64,000 nt of DNA from an uncultured Erythrobacter sp. (lineage in GTDB: Bacteria; Pseudomonadota; Alphaproteobacteria; Sphingomonadales; Sphingomonadaceae). Below the pieces are notes generated by a model. That model ran no database searches. It saw nothing but the letters and a program-made list of their open reading frames with translations, and was not told the origin of the DNA. Both the position numbers and the translations under genes were made by a program. Each line of letters opens with the position of its first letter. Position 1 is the first letter of the stretch. The stretch lies in NCBI GenBank assembly GCA_947501005.1, contig CANMTU010000001.1:582501-646500 (forward strand). Reading direction: 5' to 3'. Below are positions 9,079 through 63,185 of this stretch, one piece after another.

Positions 9079-10653
9079 TCAGCTGTCGTAGATCGGCAGG
9101 CTGGTGCAGTTCGCGCTGGTATCGCCAAACGTCACCGTGCTGGAATTGCAGGTCCAGCCCGTGATCCATTGCGTGTTGCCGTTCCACGCGGCGCCGATAT
9201 GCGCCGGCCGTTCGAAGAACGAGCCCCACTGGGTCACGTCGTAGACCGGCACCGCATCCTCGTTCGATCCGTTGACGAACAGCATCTGGAGCGTCTGCGT
9301 GAAGTTCGAATTGTTGTTCGAACCGGCATCGAACACCGCCCGGATATCGGCCGCGGTCGCGCCCGAGCTGTCGCGGAACGGCGCGGTGCAGGCGAGCACA
9401 ACGCTGTCGAAGCGCACGGGGCCGGCTTCGTCGGGCCCGGTCGTGCGGGTCAGCTCTTCCTGCCCGTCGACGCGCAGGCAGGGCGTGTCGTTGCGCGAGA
9501 CGATGACCGAGTTGGCGATCGAATAGTCGGCAAAGCCGCGAATGCGCACGACCTGGTCGCCGGCGCCGCTGCTGGCGACGAAGGTGGCGTTGGACAGCAG
9601 CGTGTTCTGGCGCGGCGTCGCATCGTTGAAGGCGTTGTCGGAATCCGCCTCGATCATCGTATCGCCGGTGTTCGGCCGCTGGACCGCGACGACGTACTGG
9701 AAGTTCGCCTTCACACCGGTATCGGTGTCGAGCCCGTCATCCTCCGCGCCCACGATCACGAGATATTTCGCGTTCACGTTGCCGCCGAAGAACTCCATGC
9801 CATCGTCCGAGCTGTTGTAGCTCATGATGTGGTTGAGCGTGGTGCCCGATCCGACGCCGCCGGTGGTCAGCGACTGAAGCTCGCTGTCGCCCGACAGGAC
9901 GAAGCCGGAATAGCGGATCTGGACGTAGCTCATGCTGCCCGAACTGTCGGTCGGGGTCGCGCCGCCGAACAGGGCCGGGTCCGCCACGCCTTCGACTTGG
10001 CGCTGGCAGTTCACCGTCCCGCCGACGGCGTTGGCGGCGATGCAATCCGTTACCGGCGCCCGGCCGGACAGGACGACGCCGCCCCACTGGCCCGAGGACG
10101 AGCCATCGTTGATGCCCTGCACGTTGTCGGTGCTGGTGAAGATGATCGGACGCTGCGCCGTGCCGTTGGCACGGATGGTGTTGCCGCGATTGACGTTGAG
10201 GAAGCTCGCCTGGCGAGCGAACACGATGACGCCGGGCTGGATCGTCAGCTGGACATTGGTGTCCGCCGCGCCGTCCGACGTATCGGCGGCCGGGCCGCCA
10301 TCGGTGCCGACATCGACGCGCCCGTTCATGCGATACAGGACGCCCTTGATATAGGGCAGGGTGGAGCTGGCAGTGAACCGCGCCGGCATGGTGCACACGC
10401 GATACTCGCCGGTCGGGCCGGAAATCGTGCCGCTATCGGTCAGACCCTGCGGGTCCGAGATGGTCGGGCACCCTGCTGCCGCGGTGACCGTGCTGGTCGG
10501 GGTGGGCGTCGGTGTAGGCGTCGGCGCGGGGGCGGGCGGGTTGTTGATGGTGATGTTGCCGCCCGTTCCGGGCGAAACGATCTCGTCGGCGCCGCAGCTG
10601 GCGAGCGCCAGGGCGCTGCAGCCCAGTACCAGTGAACGATGAATAGTGGTCAC
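9079..10653 (-). CDS. secreted lipoprotein, probable beta-helix fold, putative Pho regulon member
   Basis: This 524-residue protein has a lipoprotein signal peptide (GCSALALASC; acylated Cys near residue 20) and a Pro/Thr tether (APTPTPTPTPT). The rest is rich in Gly, Asn and Ser with short beta repeats (VFARQASFLNVNRGNTIRAN, GQWGGVVLSGRAP, DDGMEFFGGNVNAKY), which suggests a parallel beta-helix. I do not recognise an enzyme active site. The start is GTG, preceded by AGGGG. It is the first gene of an operon with a TonB-dependent receptor, behind two Pho-box-like elements. This suggests a surface component of phosphate-starvation scavenging. Catalytic or binding role is unknown. Confidence 0.75.
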   Translation of the reverse strand: MTTIHRSLVLGCSALALASCGADEIVSPGTGGNITINNPPAPAPTPTPTPTPTSTVTAAAGCPTISDPQGLTDSGTISGPTGEYRVCTMPARFTASSTLPYIKGVLYRMNGRVDVGTDGGPAADTSDGAADTNVQLTIQPGVIVFARQASFLNVNRGNTIRANGTAQRPIIFTSTDNVQGINDGSSSGQWGGVVLSGRAPVTDCIAANAVGGTVNCQRQVEGVADPALFGGATPTDSSGSMSYVQIRYSGFVLSGDSELQSLTTGGVGSGTTLNHIMSYNSSDDGMEFFGGNVNAKYLVIVGAEDDGLDTDTGVKANFQYVVAVQRPNTGDTMIEADSDNAFNDATPRQNTLLSNATFVASSGAGDQVVRIRGFADYSIANSVIVSRNDTPCLRVDGQEELTRTTGPDEAGPVRFDSVVLACTAPFRDSSGATAADIRAVFDAGSNNNSNFTQTLQMLFVNGSNEDAVPVYDVTQWGSFFERPAHIGAAWNGNTQWITGWTCNSSTVTFGDTSANCTSLPIYDS

Positions 10654-53239: not shown

Positions 53240-53329
53240 GGAGAGGTGGCAGAGAGGTCGAATGCGCCGCACTCGAAATGCGGTATAGGGGCAACTCTAT
53301 CGTGGGTTCGAATCCCACCCTCTCCGCCA
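53240..53329 (+). tRNA. tRNA-Ser (anticodon CGA)
   Basis: A 90-base cloverleaf with a long variable arm and encoded CCA. The acceptor is GGAGAGG/CCTCTCC, the anticodon stem GCCGC(A)/TGCGG encloses loop CTCGAAA (anticodon CGA), and the T arm is GTGGG-TTCGAAT-CCCAC. Its 3' end is the attachment site of the downstream island. Confidence 0.95.
53313..53329 (+). repeat. attL, 17-bp direct repeat
   Basis: TCCCACCCTCTCCGCCA, the 3' end of tRNA-Ser(CGA), identical to 63169-63185. It rebuilds the tRNA 3' end next to the integrase gene. Confidence 0.85.
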
Positions 53330-53487: not shown

Positions 53488-54802
53488 ATGTTGACGGATA
53501 AGGCCGTGCGCGCGGCTGCTTCGAGAAACAAAACATATAAACTTGCCGACAGCCGCGGATTGCATCTTCATGTGTCTGCCAGCGGCCACCAAAGCTGGCG
53601 GTACAATTACCGGTTCGAAAGCAAGGATCGTTTGCTGACCTTGGGTGCATATCCCGAGGTATCGCTGGCCGATGCTCGCGAGAAGCGCGACGAGGCGAAG
53701 AAGATCCTGCGAGATGGTCGCGACCCCCGGCAAAGCGCAAAGCGCAGTCGGCTGATAGGCAGGGCTGGTTCGGCAAAGTCGTTCGAGGAAGTGGCCCGCG
53801 ATCGGCATGCCACGCAGGTCGCGCGCTGGAAGCCAGTGCACGCCAACGATGTCATCACCAGCCTCGAGCGCGACGTCTTCCCGCATCTGGGCGCAATGCC
53901 GCTGGCCGAGATCGACAAGCCGCTTTTGCTCTCGATCCTGCGCAAGGTCGAGAAGCGCGGCGCGATTGAGACAGCGCGGCGGATTAAGCAGCGCGTTGCG
54001 GCGATCTGCCGCTACGTCAATGCCGAAGGCGCGGGCCTCGAGAACCCTGCCACTGATAGCAACGATGGATTGAAACCGCTGCCGCCGGCCAAGCGCTACC
54101 CCGCCCTCATCTACGTTGATGCGATCCGCACGATGATAGGCGACATCGATCGTGCCGGTGCCTCGCCAGTCAACCGCTTCGCTGCACGCCTGCTGGCGCT
54201 CACCGCACAGCGTCCGGGCATGGTCCGGTTTATGGAATGGGACGACATCGCCGGCATCGACTGGGGCGATACGAACGCAGATACGAGCGAGGCGTTGTGG
54301 AAGGTGCCGGAATCGCAAATCAAGCAAGAACTGCACCTGCGCACTGACGAGGCGTTCGATCATCCGGTACCGCTGTCCGCGCAGGCGGTCGATACTCTTC
54401 GCGCCGTGCGCTGGCTGACCGGTCGCTCACCGTTCGTATTTCCGGGCGCACGGTCTGGTCTCAAGCCGATCAGCGAGAAACGCGATCGGCTATTTCTACA
54501 ACCGCGAGGGCCACAAGGGCCGCCATGTTCCGCATGGATGGCGATCGAGCTTCTCGACCATCATGAACGAGCAAGCCGAGCGGGAGCTTGGCGCTGACGT
54601 GCGGCTCCTTGCCGATCGGATGATCATCGATCTGATGCTTGCGCATACGCCGAAGGGAATGAGCGCGAGCGAGCTGCGCTACAGTCGTGCCGCTTACATG
54701 CCGCGTCGCCGCGAGCTCGCGCAGCGGTGGGCGGATCTGATCATGAAAGGTGCGATTCCGGCCGATGACATCATCGACAGTCTAAGCCGCAAGCTGCGCT
54801 AG
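53488..54802 (+). pseudogene. tyrosine integrase (IntA/P4 type), frameshifted
   Basis: The N-terminal DUF4102-type domain is complete (LTDKAVRAAASRNKTYKLADSRGLHLHVSASG), the core-binding domain follows, and the catalytic domain has the first Arg in TAQRPGMVRF. Near 54478-54480 one extra A (AAA for AA) shifts the frame. Removing it restores GYFYNREGHKGRHVPHGWRS (HxxR), MLAHTP and SRAAYMPRRRELAQRWADLI with the Tyr nucleophile. As read, the first product stops at 54597 without the catalytic tyrosine. The full reading is about 437 residues. It starts at the ATG 53488, after the tRNA. Confidence 0.85.
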
Positions 54803-55161
54803 CGCCCACCGCGCTTTGCCGCTTGCTCCTCGATCCAGACAAGCACCTCGTCCTTACGCCAGCGCGAACTCGAACCGAGCTTGATCCGCTCCGGGAACGC
54901 ACCTTTCTTCTCGTCTCCATAGATCGTAGATACACTCCGCCCAATCAGCTTGCGGACCTCTTCTACGGTCAACAGCAGCGGGCCGACGCCGGGCGGATCG
55001 GACGAGACCGCCCTACGTAACTCGCCGTCCCCGACCTTTATTGTAGGGGGCGAGTTCAGCCTTCGTGCTGCGACTGCGCGAACGGCACAAAGCTGCGGAT
55101 CTGCGATCTCTTCTACCTGCCGAGTGGTCAGCGGGCCAGTGGCTTGAGCGCGGCCAGCCAA
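54799..55161 (-). CDS. AlpA-like helix-turn-helix regulator
   Basis: The C-terminal 60 residues form the AlpA-type excisionase-like domain: LTVEEVRKLIGRSVSTIYGDEKKGAFPERIKLGSSSRWRKDEVLVWIEEQAAKRGG. AlpA proteins regulate integrase or act as excision factors in P4-like islands. The start is unsure: the longest frame begins at a TTG (55161), which gives 120 residues, much longer than the usual 70. The stop overlaps the integrase end by four bases on the opposite strand. Confidence 0.75.
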   Translation of the reverse strand: MAGRAQATGPLTTRQVEEIADPQLCAVRAVAARRLNSPPTIKVGDGELRRAVSSDPPGVGPLLLTVEEVRKLIGRSVSTIYGDEKKGAFPERIKLGSSSRWRKDEVLVWIEEQAAKRGGR

Positions 55162-55879: not shown

Positions 55880-57289
55880 TTGCAGATAGGCGGCGGCTCT
55901 TTTACAGGTCGATTGAGGTTTGGGGTCGCGCTTTTAATGTATTTGGCATCGCTTAGCCTCGCTTTCGTTCCCGCGATAGGCGCGCAACTGCCCGAGTCGG
56001 AGCCTTCCCCAGCGGTAATGGCAGCAACAGAAGTTCTTTCTGCCAAATCCTTGTCGCTAACGCCAACAGAACTGTTCATTCTGGCCGATGATGCGATTCG
56101 ACGCGGCGACATCGAGCTGGCGCAGTCCGCATACGAGGCGCTGGTCGCGAATCCCGATCTAGAAATTCGAACCGAAGCGCGGTTTCGGCTTGCGATGATG
56201 CTGGCCGATCTACGACAAAACTATCGCGCAGCAGCCATTTTATTTCGTACAATATTAGATGAAAAACCTGATGCGGCGCGAGTTCGTATTGAGCTAGCTC
56301 GAATGCAATTATTGCTGGGTGACATGCGAAGCGCGGAACGGGAGTTTCGTGCAGCTCAGACCCAGACGCTCCCGCCGGAAGTCGAACAATTGGTTCGATT
56401 TTACGCTCAATCTTTGTCCGCCGCCAAACCGTCCGGCCTCAATGTCGAGCTAGCAATCGCGCCCGACAGCAATATCAACCGCGCGACGACTTCCGATACG
56501 CTGGGCACGATTATCGGCAATTTTAATCTAAGCGAAGATGCTCAGGCTAGTTCCGGCATCGGATTGAACCTGCGAGGCCAGGCCTTTTTCAAAACGCGAA
56601 TGGACGAGCGAACCGATTTGATGGTGCGTGCTTCGGCCAACGGCGATTTCTATCGTACCGGCACGTTCGATGATTATTCGATCGTCTTGCAGGCGGGTCC
56701 GACATACAGATCGGGCCGCGATCGGATCAGTTTTTCTGCCTTGGCGGGCTGGCGCTGGTTCGGGCGATCGCCGTTTTCCTTCAGCTATGGCGGCAATGCC
56801 GAATGGGCCCACCCCATTGGTAAGCGCGCCAACTTACGAGTGGATGGCGCCATAACCCATCGCACGGATCGCTTCAGTGCCCAACGGTCGGCAGACAATT
56901 TCGCGATTTCGTTGGGTCTGGATCGATCGGTTTCCGCGCGTTTTGGTATCGGTGGGCGATTACAGGCTCAGCGGGATGTCGCGAACGACCCAGGCTATTC
57001 GACTGTGATTGGCGGCGTCAGCGCTTTGGTTTTTCGCGAATTCGGAAAGACTACCGCCGTACTCAATCTGGGCTACTCCCATCTGGAGGCGGATCGTCGG
57101 CTCGATCTCTTCCCCAACCGGCGGGTAGACGACCGATACTCGGCATCGGTTGCAGGCACTTTTCGCACCCTGCGCATTGGTAGGTTTGCGCCTGTAATCC
57201 GAGTAAGTTATGAACGCAATCGCTCAAGCGTCGAAATTAACGATTTCAATCGTATTGCTGGCGAGATTGGGATCGCCGCTGCGCTGTGA
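55880..57289 (+). CDS. Slam-type (DUF560) outer-membrane surface-lipoprotein translocon
   Basis: The 469-residue product has a signal peptide (residues 1-35), a TPR-like helical domain (residues 50-175; RIELARMQLLLGDMRSAEREFRAAQ) and a C-terminal beta-barrel (residues 185-469) beginning NVELAIAPDSNINRATTSDTLG, a sequence typical of DUF560. Slam proteins move lipoproteins such as TbpB to the cell surface in Neisseria and Moraxella. The start may be TTG at 55880 (keeps the basic signal region) or ATG at 55937. The next gene, 37 bp on, encodes a TbpB-like lipoprotein, the expected client. I infer the function from architecture and pairing. Confidence 0.8.
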   Translation: MQIGGGSFTGRLRFGVALLMYLASLSLAFVPAIGAQLPESEPSPAVMAATEVLSAKSLSLTPTELFILADDAIRRGDIELAQSAYEALVANPDLEIRTEARFRLAMMLADLRQNYRAAAILFRTILDEKPDAARVRIELARMQLLLGDMRSAEREFRAAQTQTLPPEVEQLVRFYAQSLSAAKPSGLNVELAIAPDSNINRATTSDTLGTIIGNFNLSEDAQASSGIGLNLRGQAFFKTRMDERTDLMVRASANGDFYRTGTFDDYSIVLQAGPTYRSGRDRISFSALAGWRWFGRSPFSFSYGGNAEWAHPIGKRANLRVDGAITHRTDRFSAQRSADNFAISLGLDRSVSARFGIGGRLQAQRDVANDPGYSTVIGGVSALVFREFGKTTAVLNLGYSHLEADRRLDLFPNRRVDDRYSASVAGTFRTLRIGRFAPVIRVSYERNRSSVEINDFNRIAGEIGIAAAL

Positions 57290-57326
57290 AATGAGCGACG
57301 GGCAGTATCTGAGATGGGGGAATTCG

Positions 57327-59096
57327 ATGAATAATCGTGCGATTTTCATTCGGGCATCAGCAGCAGCGATGAGTCTGGGCTTGGCAGCATGCGGTTCAGG
57401 CGGCGATAGTGCGCCAGTTGTCAGCGTACCGTCGCCTCCTCCCGCACCTACGCCAACGCCAACGCCGACGCCGACGCCGGTCATCTCCGATCTAAAGGAG
57501 GATCAATCGTTCGATGTCGTAACTGGCAATCAAGTCGCACAGTTCGATCTCAAGTCGGGTAATACGCTGGCCTCGCGCAGTACGACCAGCGGGGTTCAGA
57601 TCGCATACGATGCATCGGCAGATCGCTACACACTGACGTCCGACGACGGCCGAACAGCATCCTTTTCACCTGCAGATTCTATCGCGACGGACGATCCCGA
57701 TCTTGTGCGGTTCCAGACAAAAAGCGGGAGCAACAGCGATTTTCTGACACTTGCTTATTCCGGTTATGGCTCGGCCCTGAAAACGGATTCAGTTGCACTG
57801 GGTTTCTGGCAATCGAACCGCTCGAGTTCAGGATTGCAGGACACCGACTTCGACGTATTCGTCTATGGATTCCCAAGTGCAACTTCCGCTATTCCTACGA
57901 CCGGATCGGCAGATTTCAGGACCGATGTGTTCGGTTTCTCATCGCAGGTCGGGAGCGAACCGGTCAGCTTCCAGGGCACTGGTGTCACAACATTCGATTT
58001 CGCACGCAGTACGTTCGAAATGGACACGAATTTATCCGAAACATTCTTGGTTTCAGGAGGTGGGCGCTTTGGCGCACTGTATTTGCGCGCTTCAGGACGA
58101 ATTTCGTCAATGTCGAATGCGTTCGACGGAACGTTTAGATACGAAGGGTCTAATAACCCAGTCTCGGGTCTGCTGAGTGGCTCGTTTTACGGGAGGAATG
58201 CACAGGAAGCAGGAGGGACATTTTCAGGTGATGATGGTGCGGGTAATTCGGTCGTAGGTGGTTTCACAGCCTTGTCCAACGGGCAATCCCACCAGAATCT
58301 ATCAATTTACAATCTCCGAACCGACGAACTGTTTTACACGGCCCGCGCGGGTTTTGAACGCCGCCAGAACAAAGACGGTTCACCAGGCTTTAGCCTCGGT
58401 CGCATATCTGGCAATGGCCAAGTCATTTACACCGAGTCTGAAAAAAGCTATCGAGTATCTGGTTTCGTCGATTCCGAAGGATTGTTTAAGCCCTCTGATA
58501 TTGTCAGCCCGGCACAATCACAATTTACAGTTTATCGTATCAATGCTGGGACTGAAGACATTGAATTGGCGCTTTATCAACCGGCGAACGGTGGACAGGT
58601 AGCGCTGACTTATTCGGGATTCGGCGTATATCGTCGAACATTCGAAAACTCGACTCTGATCAATGTGAAGCATGACTGGTTTCAATACGGGCTCGACACA
58701 CTCGAAGGTGTGTTGAACGCGCGCACCGGAACTGGAACGTACAACGGCGTCGTGCGGGGCACCGCCGGAAGCAATGGCGGTCTCAGGCAATTGGACGTGA
58801 CTGGGACGTCGCAATTCGTCATCGATTTCGCATCACAGGGTTATACAGGCCTACTGCGTCTTCAGGGCAGAGATACAGCGAGCAGTTCCAATATCGATTT
58901 CGGCCAATTCGACCTGACGCCCGGCAACGGCCTTTATCGAAACGCCTTTGCTACTGCGTTGCAGCAAGGTGGCAACGACGTTGGGGAAATACAGCTGCGC
59001 TTCTATGGTCCGACTGGTGAGGAGTTGGCGGGCGTATTCGGAATCACAACCGACGATTTCGCGATCGCAGGAGCGACTGCGGCACAGCGCAGATAA
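57327..59096 (+). CDS. TbpB-like bilobed surface lipoprotein (probable Slam client)
   Basis: This 589-residue lipoprotein has lipobox LGLAAC (Cys near residue 22) and a Pro/Thr tether. It then shows two repeated beta-barrel lobes, each ending in the transferrin-binding-protein-type motif: GSFYGRNAQEAGGTFSG near residue 286 and LRFYGPTGEELAGVFGI near residue 556. True TbpB binds transferrin; environmental relatives have unknown ligands. The ATG at 57327 follows GGGGGAA and lies 37 bp after the Slam stop. The pair would form a surface-exposed binding module. A cognate TonB receptor (TbpA type) is not next to it. Confidence 0.8.
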   Translation: MNNRAIFIRASAAAMSLGLAACGSGGDSAPVVSVPSPPPAPTPTPTPTPTPVISDLKEDQSFDVVTGNQVAQFDLKSGNTLASRSTTSGVQIAYDASADRYTLTSDDGRTASFSPADSIATDDPDLVRFQTKSGSNSDFLTLAYSGYGSALKTDSVALGFWQSNRSSSGLQDTDFDVFVYGFPSATSAIPTTGSADFRTDVFGFSSQVGSEPVSFQGTGVTTFDFARSTFEMDTNLSETFLVSGGGRFGALYLRASGRISSMSNAFDGTFRYEGSNNPVSGLLSGSFYGRNAQEAGGTFSGDDGAGNSVVGGFTALSNGQSHQNLSIYNLRTDELFYTARAGFERRQNKDGSPGFSLGRISGNGQVIYTESEKSYRVSGFVDSEGLFKPSDIVSPAQSQFTVYRINAGTEDIELALYQPANGGQVALTYSGFGVYRRTFENSTLINVKHDWFQYGLDTLEGVLNARTGTGTYNGVVRGTAGSNGGLRQLDVTGTSQFVIDFASQGYTGLLRLQGRDTASSSNIDFGQFDLTPGNGLYRNAFATALQQGGNDVGEIQLRFYGPTGEELAGVFGITTDDFAIAGATAAQRR

Positions 59097-59542: not shown

Positions 59543-61111
59543 TTACTCAGTTTGCTCTTGCTCGGCGGAAGCCGTGCTTTCACCGCTTCCATTATATAGC
59601 CTGTAGCGAAATTCAGCCGCGGCATTGGCGGGTAGGAGCACGCGCCAGACGCGCTTGCCGTCACGCTCGAAGGTGCGCTGGGCGAAACGGTGCCGTGCCG
59701 CGCCAGCTTCGTCTTCCGCGAATTCAGCTTCCACAGTTACGGCGGCCGGGTTGGCGTTACGCAGGATAATGACGATCTCCTGCCAATCTTCGCCGGATGT
59801 GCCGCTATAATCCGTCTCGGCAGTCACATTGTCCGCTCCGCCCAATGCAAACTCGATCACCTCGCCGACTGCCTTGTCGCGCGTCGCGCCCTCGCCGACC
59901 AGCTGGCGGTAGCCGAGCGCGCGCTGGAAGAAGGCAACCTGCCCTGACGGCAGGGGTTCGCCCACGCCATTTTCGGGCGTGTTCTCAACGCGGAAGATGC
60001 GCTTGATCTCCGTGACGGAGGCCCTTTGTATCTCAACCCGGTAGATCAGTTCACCCTTAACCTCCTGCTTGTCGAGGAAGGCGACCTGCTTCTGCGAATT
60101 TGCGGCGACCGTCGTGGGAAAGGGAATGCGGTAAAGCTTGAGGTCGCCCAAATCTTCGCGCCTGGCGATACGCGTGCCTGTCACCACAATGGCATCGACT
60201 GACATCGCAGGGGGAGGAGGAGGCGGAGAGAAAAGGCGAGGCGGTTCAGGCGCATTGTAGCCGCGGAAGGCACCGGTAGTTCCGATTGGCCAGCAATTGT
60301 AGGATACACTTTGCCTGCGCCTTGCCCTTGCCAGCCGCTCATTCTCCCCTCCGGTGCTACGAAATACTTGTCCCGCTATAGCGTTCGTGTCAGCAGCAAC
60401 AAAACTCGTCGTATCGGCCGAGACCAGCGTCATCCATCCACGAAGCGCCATGGCGCTCGCGTCTGCGTTTAGCTCTGCCACGTAATTTGCCTGCCAGTCG
60501 AACCGGTCGGCGAGATAGGTGAGCGTCACATTGTATTGCCCGCCTGGCTGATCCGCGACCTTTACTGATAGGGTGGGCTTGGGTGACAAGCTTTGGGGCA
60601 CCCGGTCAAAAACCAGCGTTTGCGCCAGACCGGTGCAACGCAGCGCCTCGAACCCCGCCACTGTCTCCAGCACTACGCTGCTCGCGCCCGAGCGGATCAG
60701 GGCAGGCTCTTCGATGTACTTGCCGCTTGCCTGATTGAAGCGCCGCACCGTCACGCTCTGGCCGGTAAAATGGTCGAGCAAGCCACGCTCGCTCAGGAGG
60801 TTCGCGTCCTGGTTCTTCTCCTCAACGCCCACCCCGCGCACCAGCGCGCTTGCCGGATCAATCCCGCTCGCCACGCCCTCGAAGCGGATGGTGGTCGGAC
60901 CGGGCGGCAGGGTAACTAAGCGCGTTTCGCTCACAAGGGCGAAGCCTTCGGGCCAGTTGCGATCGATAGCGTCATCCGGTGCGCGACCGCTGTCGCGGTA
61001 GAGCGACACCTCGACCGCGTCCGGCCCAGCCGATGTCACCGCGTCCTGCGCCTGCAGCGGCGCGGACCAGAGCGCAGCGACCAGACCGATCCTATACAGA
61101 AGGCGGAGCAT
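59543..61111 (-). CDS. DUF4139 domain-containing exported protein
   Basis: This 522-residue protein has a signal peptide (residues 1-21, LQAQ). The DUF4139-type sequence runs from about residue 170 to the end, with LTYLADRFDWQANYVAELNADASAMALRGWMTLVS, LYRIPFPTTVAANSQKQVAFL and a beta-rich C-terminus. A poly-proline stretch (PPPPPPAM) and the segment DAIVVTGTRIARRED, which resembles a TonB-box extension, lie in the middle. It lies 12 bp downstream of a second, related gene. Role unknown. Confidence 0.75.
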   Translation of the reverse strand: MLRLLYRIGLVAALWSAPLQAQDAVTSAGPDAVEVSLYRDSGRAPDDAIDRNWPEGFALVSETRLVTLPPGPTTIRFEGVASGIDPASALVRGVGVEEKNQDANLLSERGLLDHFTGQSVTVRRFNQASGKYIEEPALIRSGASSVVLETVAGFEALRCTGLAQTLVFDRVPQSLSPKPTLSVKVADQPGGQYNVTLTYLADRFDWQANYVAELNADASAMALRGWMTLVSADTTSFVAADTNAIAGQVFRSTGGENERLARARRRQSVSYNCWPIGTTGAFRGYNAPEPPRLFSPPPPPPAMSVDAIVVTGTRIARREDLGDLKLYRIPFPTTVAANSQKQVAFLDKQEVKGELIYRVEIQRASVTEIKRIFRVENTPENGVGEPLPSGQVAFFQRALGYRQLVGEGATRDKAVGEVIEFALGGADNVTAETDYSGTSGEDWQEIVIILRNANPAAVTVEAEFAEDEAGAARHRFAQRTFERDGKRVWRVLLPANAAAEFRYRLYNGSGESTASAEQEQTE

Positions 61112-61123
61112 GGCGCTTTCTGC

Positions 61124-62601
61124 TCAGTAGCGAGTGGCGAAGGTGGCAGACAGGACAATCTCGCCATTCGCAGGTACCGGCACTTCCCACACGCGGGTGT
61201 CGGCATTGCGCTGCTTGCCCGCGATGCTTTCCTCCAGCAGCCGGGTGTCTCGGTAATACCCGTCGAGACCGTTCTGCGCCACGGTGACAACCACCGGACG
61301 GCTGCTCGCATTTGTCAGCGTGTAGCGCATCTCCGTGTGCCAAAAAGTCGGGTTTTTTTCGATCACTATCGTCTCGGCCGTGCCATCGCCGCGGGTGATA
61401 CGATAACGGACTGCTCGCTCCCATTCGTCCGAAGTCATCGGGCTGCGAGCTACGACGTTTGGCTGAACCTTCACATCGAACGCCTCCCCGTGACGAGCGC
61501 CAGCTGCGACCCTGCGGGCGTGTGACCGACCTCGCTTTCGCCAATGAACTGCGCATTGCCGCGCGCATCGCGTTGGTAAACCCGCACCGTTCCGGCGGGC
61601 AGCGCATCGCCTAGGCCGCCCTGCTGGCTGGTCGAGAACTTGATCACTGTGGCAACCGCCTGCGCTTCGTCATCGCTGCGAAGCCAGTCATTCGTAAACT
61701 CATATCCCCGTGCCGCTGCTGCGCCGCTCACATCCAGAAAGCTGACCTGCTTTTGCTGCGCGTTGGCGATGGTGGTGCGCCCCTCAAGCGGGTAGAGGTA
61801 GAAATCGCCCAGCCGCTCGCGATCCGCGCTTTCGGTGCCGGGATCCATCCGTTGCGTGGCGCGGCCGCCGCGTCTTTGCGGATAGGGGTTGGATTGCACT
61901 TCCCCCACACTGCCAGCAACCAGCAGGGTGCGCGCGTTCTGGAAAGTGGTGCCGGTGTTGTTGGTAAGCGTAATCCATCCCTGAACATCGAGCTTACCCT
62001 CCGGCTCGTCGAACAGCGCGACATAATCCGCGCGCCATTCCAGCCCACCCGATAGATAGCTCAAGGCAAGCTGGCGCGTGGCGGGACGCTCCGCCTCCAA
62101 AGTGACCGACAAGGTCGGTTTGGCGCGCAAGTTCGACGGGATCTCGTCGAAAACGACCCGCACGGGCAAGCCATCATCGCGAAGCACTTCGATCCGTTCG
62201 CCAATCTGCATGACGACGCCGTTGTTGACCGCCAAGATCGTTGCCCGCTCGCGCGTTTCAACTCCGGTCGCGGGGTTTGTGCGGATGAGCGTTACCTGGC
62301 GCCCCACTGCCTTTGCCATCAGTGCCCCGGGGGAGAGCAGGTCATAATCGAAGTTCTGCTCTCGAATAATAAATCCCTCACCCTCGAGTGTCACCGTCTC
62401 GGGGCGGATCTGCGCGGACACATCCGGGAACGGGATGGAGGTGATACCGTCAGGAACTGTCACGCTGCGCGCGTCTCGGATCAGCGCCTGGTCGTCGTTG
62501 TAGATGGTAACAGACAGGTCACCTTGTGAGTTGCCTCTGTCTTGCGCGGCAAGCGGCGACAGCGGCAAGGCGGCCGCGGCTAACAGAAAGATTGAACGCA
62601 T
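61124..62601 (-). pseudogene. DUF4139 domain-containing exported protein, frameshifted
   Basis: The N-terminal part (62601 to 61471, 376 residues) has a signal peptide (LSPLAAQ), the beta-sandwich region and the DUF4139 core (LALSYLSGGLEWRADYVALFDEPEG; LYPLEGRTTIANAQQKQVSFL). It breaks off after QLALVTG. The remaining 115 residues (VQPNVVARSPMTSDEWERAV) continue in another frame from 61474. One base appears missing in ACGGGGAGG near 61483-61490; restoring it gives LVTGEAFDVKVQPN. The restored protein has about 490 residues. Decay or a sequence error are both possible. It is the upstream member of a tandem pair. Confidence 0.75.
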
Positions 62602-63168: not shown

Positions 63169-63185
63169 TCCCACCCTCTCCGCCA
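63169..63185 (+). repeat. attR, 17-bp direct repeat
   Basis: TCCCACCCTCTCCGCCA, an exact copy of the tRNA-Ser 3' end at 53313-53329, with no tRNA body upstream of it. It marks the far end of the island. Confidence 0.85.

What the first reader, a model, noticed from the sequence alone, without database searches (positions are those of the whole stretch)
55880..59096. Slam-like translocon and a bilobed TbpB-like lipoprotein as cargo of a tRNA island in an alphaproteobacterium
The gene pair has the full Slam logic: TPR plus DUF560 barrel, followed after 37 bp by a lipoprotein with a tether and two barrel lobes each ending in the FYG..E..G.F motif. Slam is best known from Neisseria and related host-associated bacteria. 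Here there is no TbpA-type receptor beside the pair, and it lies in a small island with few other genes. A free-living sphingomonad has no transferrin to bind, so the ligand must be something else.
Basis: partly seen in the sequence, partly recalled or inferred. Interest (0 to 1): 0.75.

Follow-up and report, generated by a model that had tools for sequence, protein, structure and literature searches.

The report
Slam translocon with swapped surface lipoprotein
A bacterium of the sphingomonad group carries, on a small foreign-looking DNA island, a two-gene kit that most likely pushes a two-lobed lipoprotein onto the cell surface; the kit is of a kind already described, but its surface protein seems to come from a different lineage than its export protein.

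Summary
55880-57289 encodes a Slam/T11SS outer-membrane protein (PF04575, 42.7 bits, cut-off 22; AlphaFold: helices, then 14 long strands). 57327-59096 encodes a lipobox lipoprotein with a Pro-Thr tether and two homologous TbpB-like lobes (PF01298, 46.1 bits, cut-off 26; best PDB folds TbpB and LbpB). The pair lies between tRNA-Ser(CGA) and an exact 17-bp copy of its 3' end at 63169-63185, is 10-12 points lower in G+C than the rest of the window, and stands beside a broken integrase. It is not unexpected: PF04575 occurs in 111 of 397 sampled family genomes, sphingomonad Slams are in print as T11SS subcluster 1C, and this cargo type as 'Sphingomonas surface proteins'. Lack of a neighbouring TonB receptor is the rule: 15 of 60 fully flanked sphingomonad loci have one within 5 kb, five of them in one Slam clade. 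What I did not find in print is cargo exchange. The Slam is sister to that of Erythrobacter crassostrea (67%), whose cargo is 31% identical; the cargo is sister to that of Sphingosinicella microcystinivorans (47%). AU tests reject shared histories here and in other sphingomonads. Ligand unknown; surface binding by a swappable displayed protein is my best reading.

The parts
53240..53329 (+). tRNA-Ser (CGA), integration target
   Evidence: ARAGORN
53313..53329 (+). attL-like: last 17 bp of the tRNA gene
   Evidence: exact direct repeat with 63169-63185, only two copies in 64 kb
53488..54597 (+). tyrosine integrase piece with arm-binding and central domains; the frame breaks, and what looks like the rest lies in another frame up to about 54802
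   Evidence: Pfam PF13356 and PF22022 but no catalytic-domain hit; second frame read by eye
54799..55161 (-). AlpA-like HTH protein
   Evidence: PF12728 29.0 (cut-off 27), PF05930 25.6 (cut-off 21)
55880..57289 (+). Slam / T11SS outer-membrane translocon: signal peptide, TPR-like helices, 14-strand barrel (alternative starts 55913, 55937)
   Evidence: PF04575 42.7 bits; AlphaFold; 46-53% identity to 10 other Slams of the family
57327..59096 (+). surface lipoprotein: lipobox Cys22, Pro-Thr tether, two TbpB-like lobes
   Evidence: PF01298 46.1 bits, NF041636 56.6 bits (below cut-off 80), AlphaFold and Foldseek
57777..58277 (+). N-lobe barrel (residues 151-317)
   Evidence: lobe HMM
58599..59093 (+). 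C-lobe barrel (residues 425-589), the presumed Slam-recognised part
   Evidence: lobe HMM; role inferred from passages of PMC9090332 and PMC12282271
59543..61111 (-). DUF4139/DUF4140-like protein, island passenger
   Evidence: Pfam below cut-off; no relative in any of 80 Slam loci
61124..62601 (-). second DUF4140-like gene, apparently broken into 61471-62601 and 61124-61474
   Evidence: ORFs; PF13600 below cut-off; no Pfam hit for the second piece
63169..63185 (+). attR-like 17-bp repeat, proposed right end

Best explanation
A type 11 (Slam) secretion pair. The lipoprotein is exported by Sec and lipidated at Cys22. It is kept unfolded in the periplasm, recognised through its C-terminal barrel lobe by the Slam protein, passed through the outer membrane, and folds outside, anchored by its lipid on a Pro-Thr tether. 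The N-lobe then binds a ligand that is probably not transferrin. Of the ligand classes I favour a surface-binding (adhesin or capture) role without a dedicated TonB receptor, about 0.45, over a nutrient co-receptor, about 0.35. The pair is foreign: it sits on a low-G+C tRNA-Ser island. Translocon and cargo have separate histories, so the cassette was put together by exchanging the cargo beside a related Slam. Shown: gene families, predicted folds, two lobes, the terminal repeat, composition, discordant trees. Inferred from Neisseria work: the transport steps. Guess: the ligand.
For: Families and folds. Of 80 sphingomonad Slam loci, 63 have a relative of this cargo within 3 kb on the same strand, each with at least one lobe by HMM. 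Composition: the window Slam is 9.9 and the cargo 12.0 points below the window's first 53 kb; in 61 relatives the largest drops against their own flanks (up to 10 kb each side) are 5.3 and 10.5. Direct repeat. Discordance: identities; Slam tree and cargo tree, both sister pairs 100/100; AU tests, 4 of 4 on Slam (p 3e-4 to 3e-73) and 2 of 2 on cargo (p 0.004 and 0.003).
Against: I found no experiment on a sphingomonad T11SS. TPR Pfam models and NF041636 stay under their cut-offs. Integrase and a neighbouring gene are broken, so the island may be decaying. An integrase remnant is shared with a Slam-less genome. The AU groups were named after seeing the other tree, on quick trees, and the cargo tree has long rows and 20 open forks.
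Confidence: 0.85

Rival explanations
1. Nutrient co-receptor in trans: the lipoprotein is displayed by Slam, captures haem, a metal chelate or a vitamin and hands it to one of the TonB-dependent receptors encoded elsewhere in the genome. (Compatible with the display step above; it differs in the ligand.)
For: The fold is that of TbpB, LbpB, haemophilin and HphA, iron or haem capture proteins by recall and by passages. The own genome has 26 PF00593 matches, 24 over the cut-off. One sphingomonad Slam clade has a TonB receptor within 5 kb in 5 of 5 fully flanked loci, and the cargo of a locus of that type, L092, has a weak HphA_C hit (17.1 bits, cut-off 31).
Against: Among the loci that include the window's own group, 7 of 39 fully flanked ones have a TonB receptor within 5 kb (a chance rate was not measured). 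Of all eight such loci, flanked or not, four carry the B12-type receptor of an uptake operon. The nearest TonB receptor to the window pair is about 29 kb away.
Confidence: 0.35
2. The pair is a relic on a decaying island and is not expressed.
For: Integrase and the second DUF4140-like gene are broken; the genome nearest by hspQ keeps only an integrase remnant there.
Against: Both genes of the pair are full length with lipobox, 14 strands and both lobes; frame breaks can also be assembly errors.
Confidence: 0.1
3. Translocon and cargo co-diverged; the apparent exchange is an artefact of unequal rates and sparse sampling.
For: Cargo lobes evolve fast, many cargo branches are long and 20 forks are open; one genome per species; only the best 80 of 92 loci kept.
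Against: Both sister pairs are 100/100 and AU rejects the shared history in both directions. L117 and L136 cargos, both three-lobed, stay 42% alike over 804 columns while the window cargo is 31 and 29% to them. In the nine-row cargo group the cargo follows its Slam in the window and two others and precedes it in six.
Confidence: 0.15

Closest known systems
T11SS/Slam subcluster 1C (Sphingomonadaceae), Grossman et al. 2021, PMC8406197
   Same: DUF560 outer-membrane protein of a sphingomonad next to a TbpB_B_D-type cargo
   Different: The published network was not rerun here, so placement in 1C is by taxonomy only; this copy lies on a tRNA island
'Sphingomonas surface proteins', Grossman et al. 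2025, PMC12282271
   Same: Pro-Thr N-terminal tether, lipoprotein, several TbpB-type handle-barrel units, Slam neighbour
   Different: Cargo and Slam of this locus have different nearest relatives; the authors' member lists could not be read
Slam1-TbpB of Neisseria meningitidis
   Same: Outer-membrane translocon plus bilobed surface lipoprotein; TbpB is the best fold match
   Different: No TonB receptor within about 29 kb, no TbpB handle families, ligand cannot be assumed to be transferrin
NHBA/GNA2132 C-terminal domain
   Same: Best sequence match of the C-lobe in the PDB (E 0.0097); TMt 0.76 by fold
   Different: The weak sequence match covers only the C-lobe; one barrel domain against two lobes here

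Membership tests
Slam / T11SS outer-membrane protein (PF04575) | DUF560/SlipAM barrel above curated cut-off | tested here: met
   42.7 bits against 22
Slam / T11SS outer-membrane protein (PF04575) | N-terminal TPR domain | tested here: inconclusive
   TPR_16 and TPR_Slam under cut-off; helices predicted with block pLDDT 90 or more for residues 61-140
Slam / T11SS outer-membrane protein (PF04575) | 14-strand barrel | tested here: met
   14 long strands from 185 to 468 in the predicted model
Slam / T11SS outer-membrane protein (PF04575) | moves a cargo across the outer membrane | not testable with these tools
   needs an experiment
Slam-dependent surface lipoprotein | lipobox signal | tested here: met
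   LAAC, Cys22, read from the sequence; no signal-peptide program was run
Slam-dependent surface lipoprotein | TbpB_B_D barrel above cut-off | tested here: met
   46.1 bits against 26, two stretches
NCBIfam NF041636 slam_lipo equivalog | score over 80 bits | tested here: not met
   56.6 bits; so not filed under this equivalog. Relatives L117 and L121 also stay under it (70.5, 65.1)
TbpB proper | TbpB_A / TbpB_C handle families | tested here: not met
   absent among hits up to E 10
TbpB proper | TbpA-type receptor beside it | tested here: not met
   nearest PF00593 match about 29 kb away
Sphingomonas surface protein architecture (PMC12282271) | Pro-Thr tether plus two or more TbpB-type barrels | tested here: met
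   direct match to the authors' members not testable
T11SS subcluster 1C (PMC8406197) | position in the authors' similarity network | not tested
   network not available; inferred from taxonomy
tRNA-borne integrative island | tRNA 3' end repeated at the far end, integrase next to the tRNA, foreign composition | tested here: met
   the integrase is broken
tRNA-borne integrative island | empty site in a relative | tested here: inconclusive
   tRNA beside hspQ in 30 of 30 loci examined, own locus included, but the right flank found no syntenic partner

The most novel reading that the evidence does not exclude
In sphingomonads the Slam translocon and its lipoprotein form an exchangeable display cassette. 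Cargo genes with one to four lobes are swapped beside different Slam lineages, sometimes on islands, so one translocon can present very different surface binders over evolutionary time. It follows that Slam recognition must rest on features shared by all C-terminal barrels.
Probability: 0.6. Interest if true: 0.5.

Novelty: new member of a known kind. Interest (0 to 1): 0.35.

Why it matters
Verified T11SS cargo comes from animal-associated bacteria (PMC12282271, abstract). Sphingomonad pairs are numerous, mostly without a TonB receptor beside them, and I found no characterised member. The cargo exchange seen here would give natural combinations with which to ask what a Slam recognises in its cargo, using harmless bacteria and E. 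coli K-12.

Tried and rejected
Chance resemblance: rejected by families, folds and 80 related loci. TbpB itself: rejected. Link with vitamin B12 uptake: a receptor like that of L118 (best NCBIfam hit the B12 receptor, 260.5 bits, under its cut-off of 599.7) lies 3-9 kb upstream of the Slam in 10 of 80 loci, a BtuC-like permease is in 12, and a uvrA-like gene (named by recall) in 27. The window pair lacks them, so I read this as shared chromosomal position; a functional link is not excluded. Faster change of the Slam-facing lobe after exchange: not supported. The N-lobe is more alike than the C-lobe in 10 of 18 pairs with the same Slam lineage and 17 of 18 with different ones, but also in 97 of 120 other cargo pairs. 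Empty-site proof of the right island end: not obtained. Plasmids: 19 records have a Slam relative, six of them Novosphingobium, best 47%; no close copy of this Slam. P0002 as a genus-wide query (40 of 60 genomes) mostly hit its lipobox and Pro-Thr tether in the listed rows, so I did not use those counts. DUF4139/DUF4140-like genes beside other Slams: none in 80 loci by tblastn at 1e-10. The receptor profile has at least one false hit, an M13 peptidase in L132; that locus also has a true receptor, so locus counts stand.

Full report
Observation. The first scores 42.7 bits for SlipAM/DUF560 (cut-off 22) and is the only such gene found in its 3.12-Mb genome. Its AlphaFold model shows seven helices between residues 62 and 181 and then 14 long strands. 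Foldseek ranks OmpG first and the cellulose channel BcsC second; no Slam structure is among the 50 rows shown (that OmpG has 14 strands is recalled). The second scores 46.1 bits for TbpB_B_D (cut-off 26), and PF01298 hits no other protein of the genome. It has a lipobox, a Pro-Thr tether and two homologous lobes. Its model matches whole bilobed TbpB chains first, over 500 and more alignment columns. TM-scores over the full chain are low (0.2-0.3, rmsd about 20 A), so the lobes are TbpB-like but their arrangement is not established.

Island. tRNA-Ser(CGA) at 53240-53329 is followed by an integrase with arm and central domains whose frame breaks, an AlpA-like gene, the pair, and two DUF4139/DUF4140-like genes, the second broken. 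An exact copy of the last 17 bp of the tRNA lies at 63169-63185 and nowhere else in the window. G+C is 0.579 for the island and 0.642 for the window. The pair is 9.9 and 12.0 points under the window's first 53 kb, more than any of 61 relatives against their own flanks. hspQ was found in 58 of 60 genomes of the genus; the tRNA lies beside it in 30 of 30 loci taken, own locus included. In five genomes read further, none of the window's right-flank or DUF4139-like genes was found to follow the tRNA. One of the five, nearest by hspQ (95%), keeps an 87% identical integrase remnant there and has no Slam. The right end therefore rests on the repeat alone.

Distribution. PF04575 is in 6 of 60 genomes of the genus, one of them a 78-residue fragment, and in 111 of 397 sampled genomes of the family, 57 of 91 genera. 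A scan with an alignment of 11 Slams gave 80 named loci, the best of 92; four bear only a class or phylum name, the others names from the sphingomonad order (the order by recall). ARAGORN on 60 of the 80 found a tRNA or tmRNA in four, and an integrase like the window's lies in one of 80 (L155), so tRNA islands are the exception. A uvrA-like gene is in 27 of the 80, which suggests an old chromosomal position for many pairs.

TonB receptors. A profile iterated from four Pfam-confirmed receptors found one within 10 kb in 26 of 80 loci (many contigs are short) and within 3.5 kb in 10. With both flanks at least 5 kb long, the counts within 5 kb are 5 of 5 in a seven-row Slam clade, 3 of 16 in a twenty-row clade, and 7 of 39 in the rest, which are the window's group plus four loci not placed in the tree. 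The seven-row clade was partly picked out after seeing such loci in the genus, and no chance rate was measured. Of the eight loci in the rest with a receptor within 5 kb, four carry the B12-type one. Hooda et al. 2017 report TonB receptors in 120 of 185 Slam clusters (PMC5449769, passages); neighbourhood sizes may differ, so the comparison is rough.

Cargo. Of 80 loci, 63 have a cargo relative within 3 kb on the same strand. Counted with the window, 64 cargos have one (11), two (41), three (11) or four (1) lobes by HMMs built from the 25 cargos of alignment A2. The window Slam is sister to that of Erythrobacter crassostrea (100/100, 67% identity), but its cargo is 31% identical to that one's three-lobed cargo and 47% to the two-lobed one of Sphingosinicella microcystinivorans. 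The Slam tree holds the window and 76 of 80 loci; four shorter reading frames were left out. In the tree of the last 275 residues of the cargo (61 rows; L126, L152 and L191 dropped as split or truncated) the window cargo is sister to the Sphingosinicella one (100/100), inside a nine-row group (99/97). Six of those nine belong to another Slam clade and place the cargo before the Slam. Holding cargo groups together on the Slam tree was rejected in 4 of 4 tests, and holding the window cargo with cargos of its Slam's relatives in 2 of 2. The groups were chosen after seeing the trees, and quick trees were used.

Comparison with print. Grossman et al. 2021 (PMC8406197; one section and passages) describe subcluster 1C as largely environmental Sphingomonadaceae without characterised representatives. 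Grossman et al. 2025 (PMC12282271; abstract, outline, one section and passages) describe Sphingomonas surface proteins with Pro-Thr repeats and several barrel units, and note that cluster 1 co-occurs with mobile-element signs. The transport model comes from PMC9090332 (abstract and passages). Searches and the word searches showed no report of cargo exchange between Slam lineages; these are listings and passages, and most subscription papers are not in that library.

Verdict. A real, well-formed Slam pair, new member of a known kind, on a foreign-looking island. The added interest is the separate ancestry of translocon and cargo.

Noticed in passing
window 59543-62601: Two DUF4139/DUF4140-like genes in tandem on the minus strand inside the island, the second one broken; both score below the Pfam cut-offs and neither has a relative in the 80 Slam loci.
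   Followed up: partly
window 63186 onward and L111: Right of the island lies an MFS transporter (PF07690) whose full-length genus relatives are about 40-43% identical; by eye the ORFs further right look like oxidoreductase, ligase and acyl-CoA dehydrogenase genes, perhaps a second accessory layer at the same tRNA.
   Followed up: partly
L112 11316-12056, minus strand: The genome nearest by hspQ keeps a truncated integrase remnant, 87% identical over 244 residues, at the same tRNA-Ser, without Slam.
   Followed up: yes
L155 4199-4798 and Slam at 10001: Novosphingobium ovatum has a tRNA-Leu with an integrase-like stretch (36%) just after it, about 5 kb before its Slam: a possible second tRNA-island case.
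   Followed up: no
L118, L119, L122, L126, L129, L132, L134, L142, L152, L157: In these loci a B12-type receptor and a BtuC-like gene lie upstream of the Slam and a uvrA-like gene downstream; position only, or function, is open.
   Followed up: partly
L092, L096, L161, L165, L184, L195: A second kind of sphingomonad Slam locus goes with a TonB receptor and, where looked at, a smaller cargo and (by eye) a CadC-like regulator; the L092 cargo has a weak HphA_C hit, perhaps haem capture.
   Followed up: partly
L134, L175, L177: Some loci have two or three cargo reading frames around one Slam.
   Followed up: no
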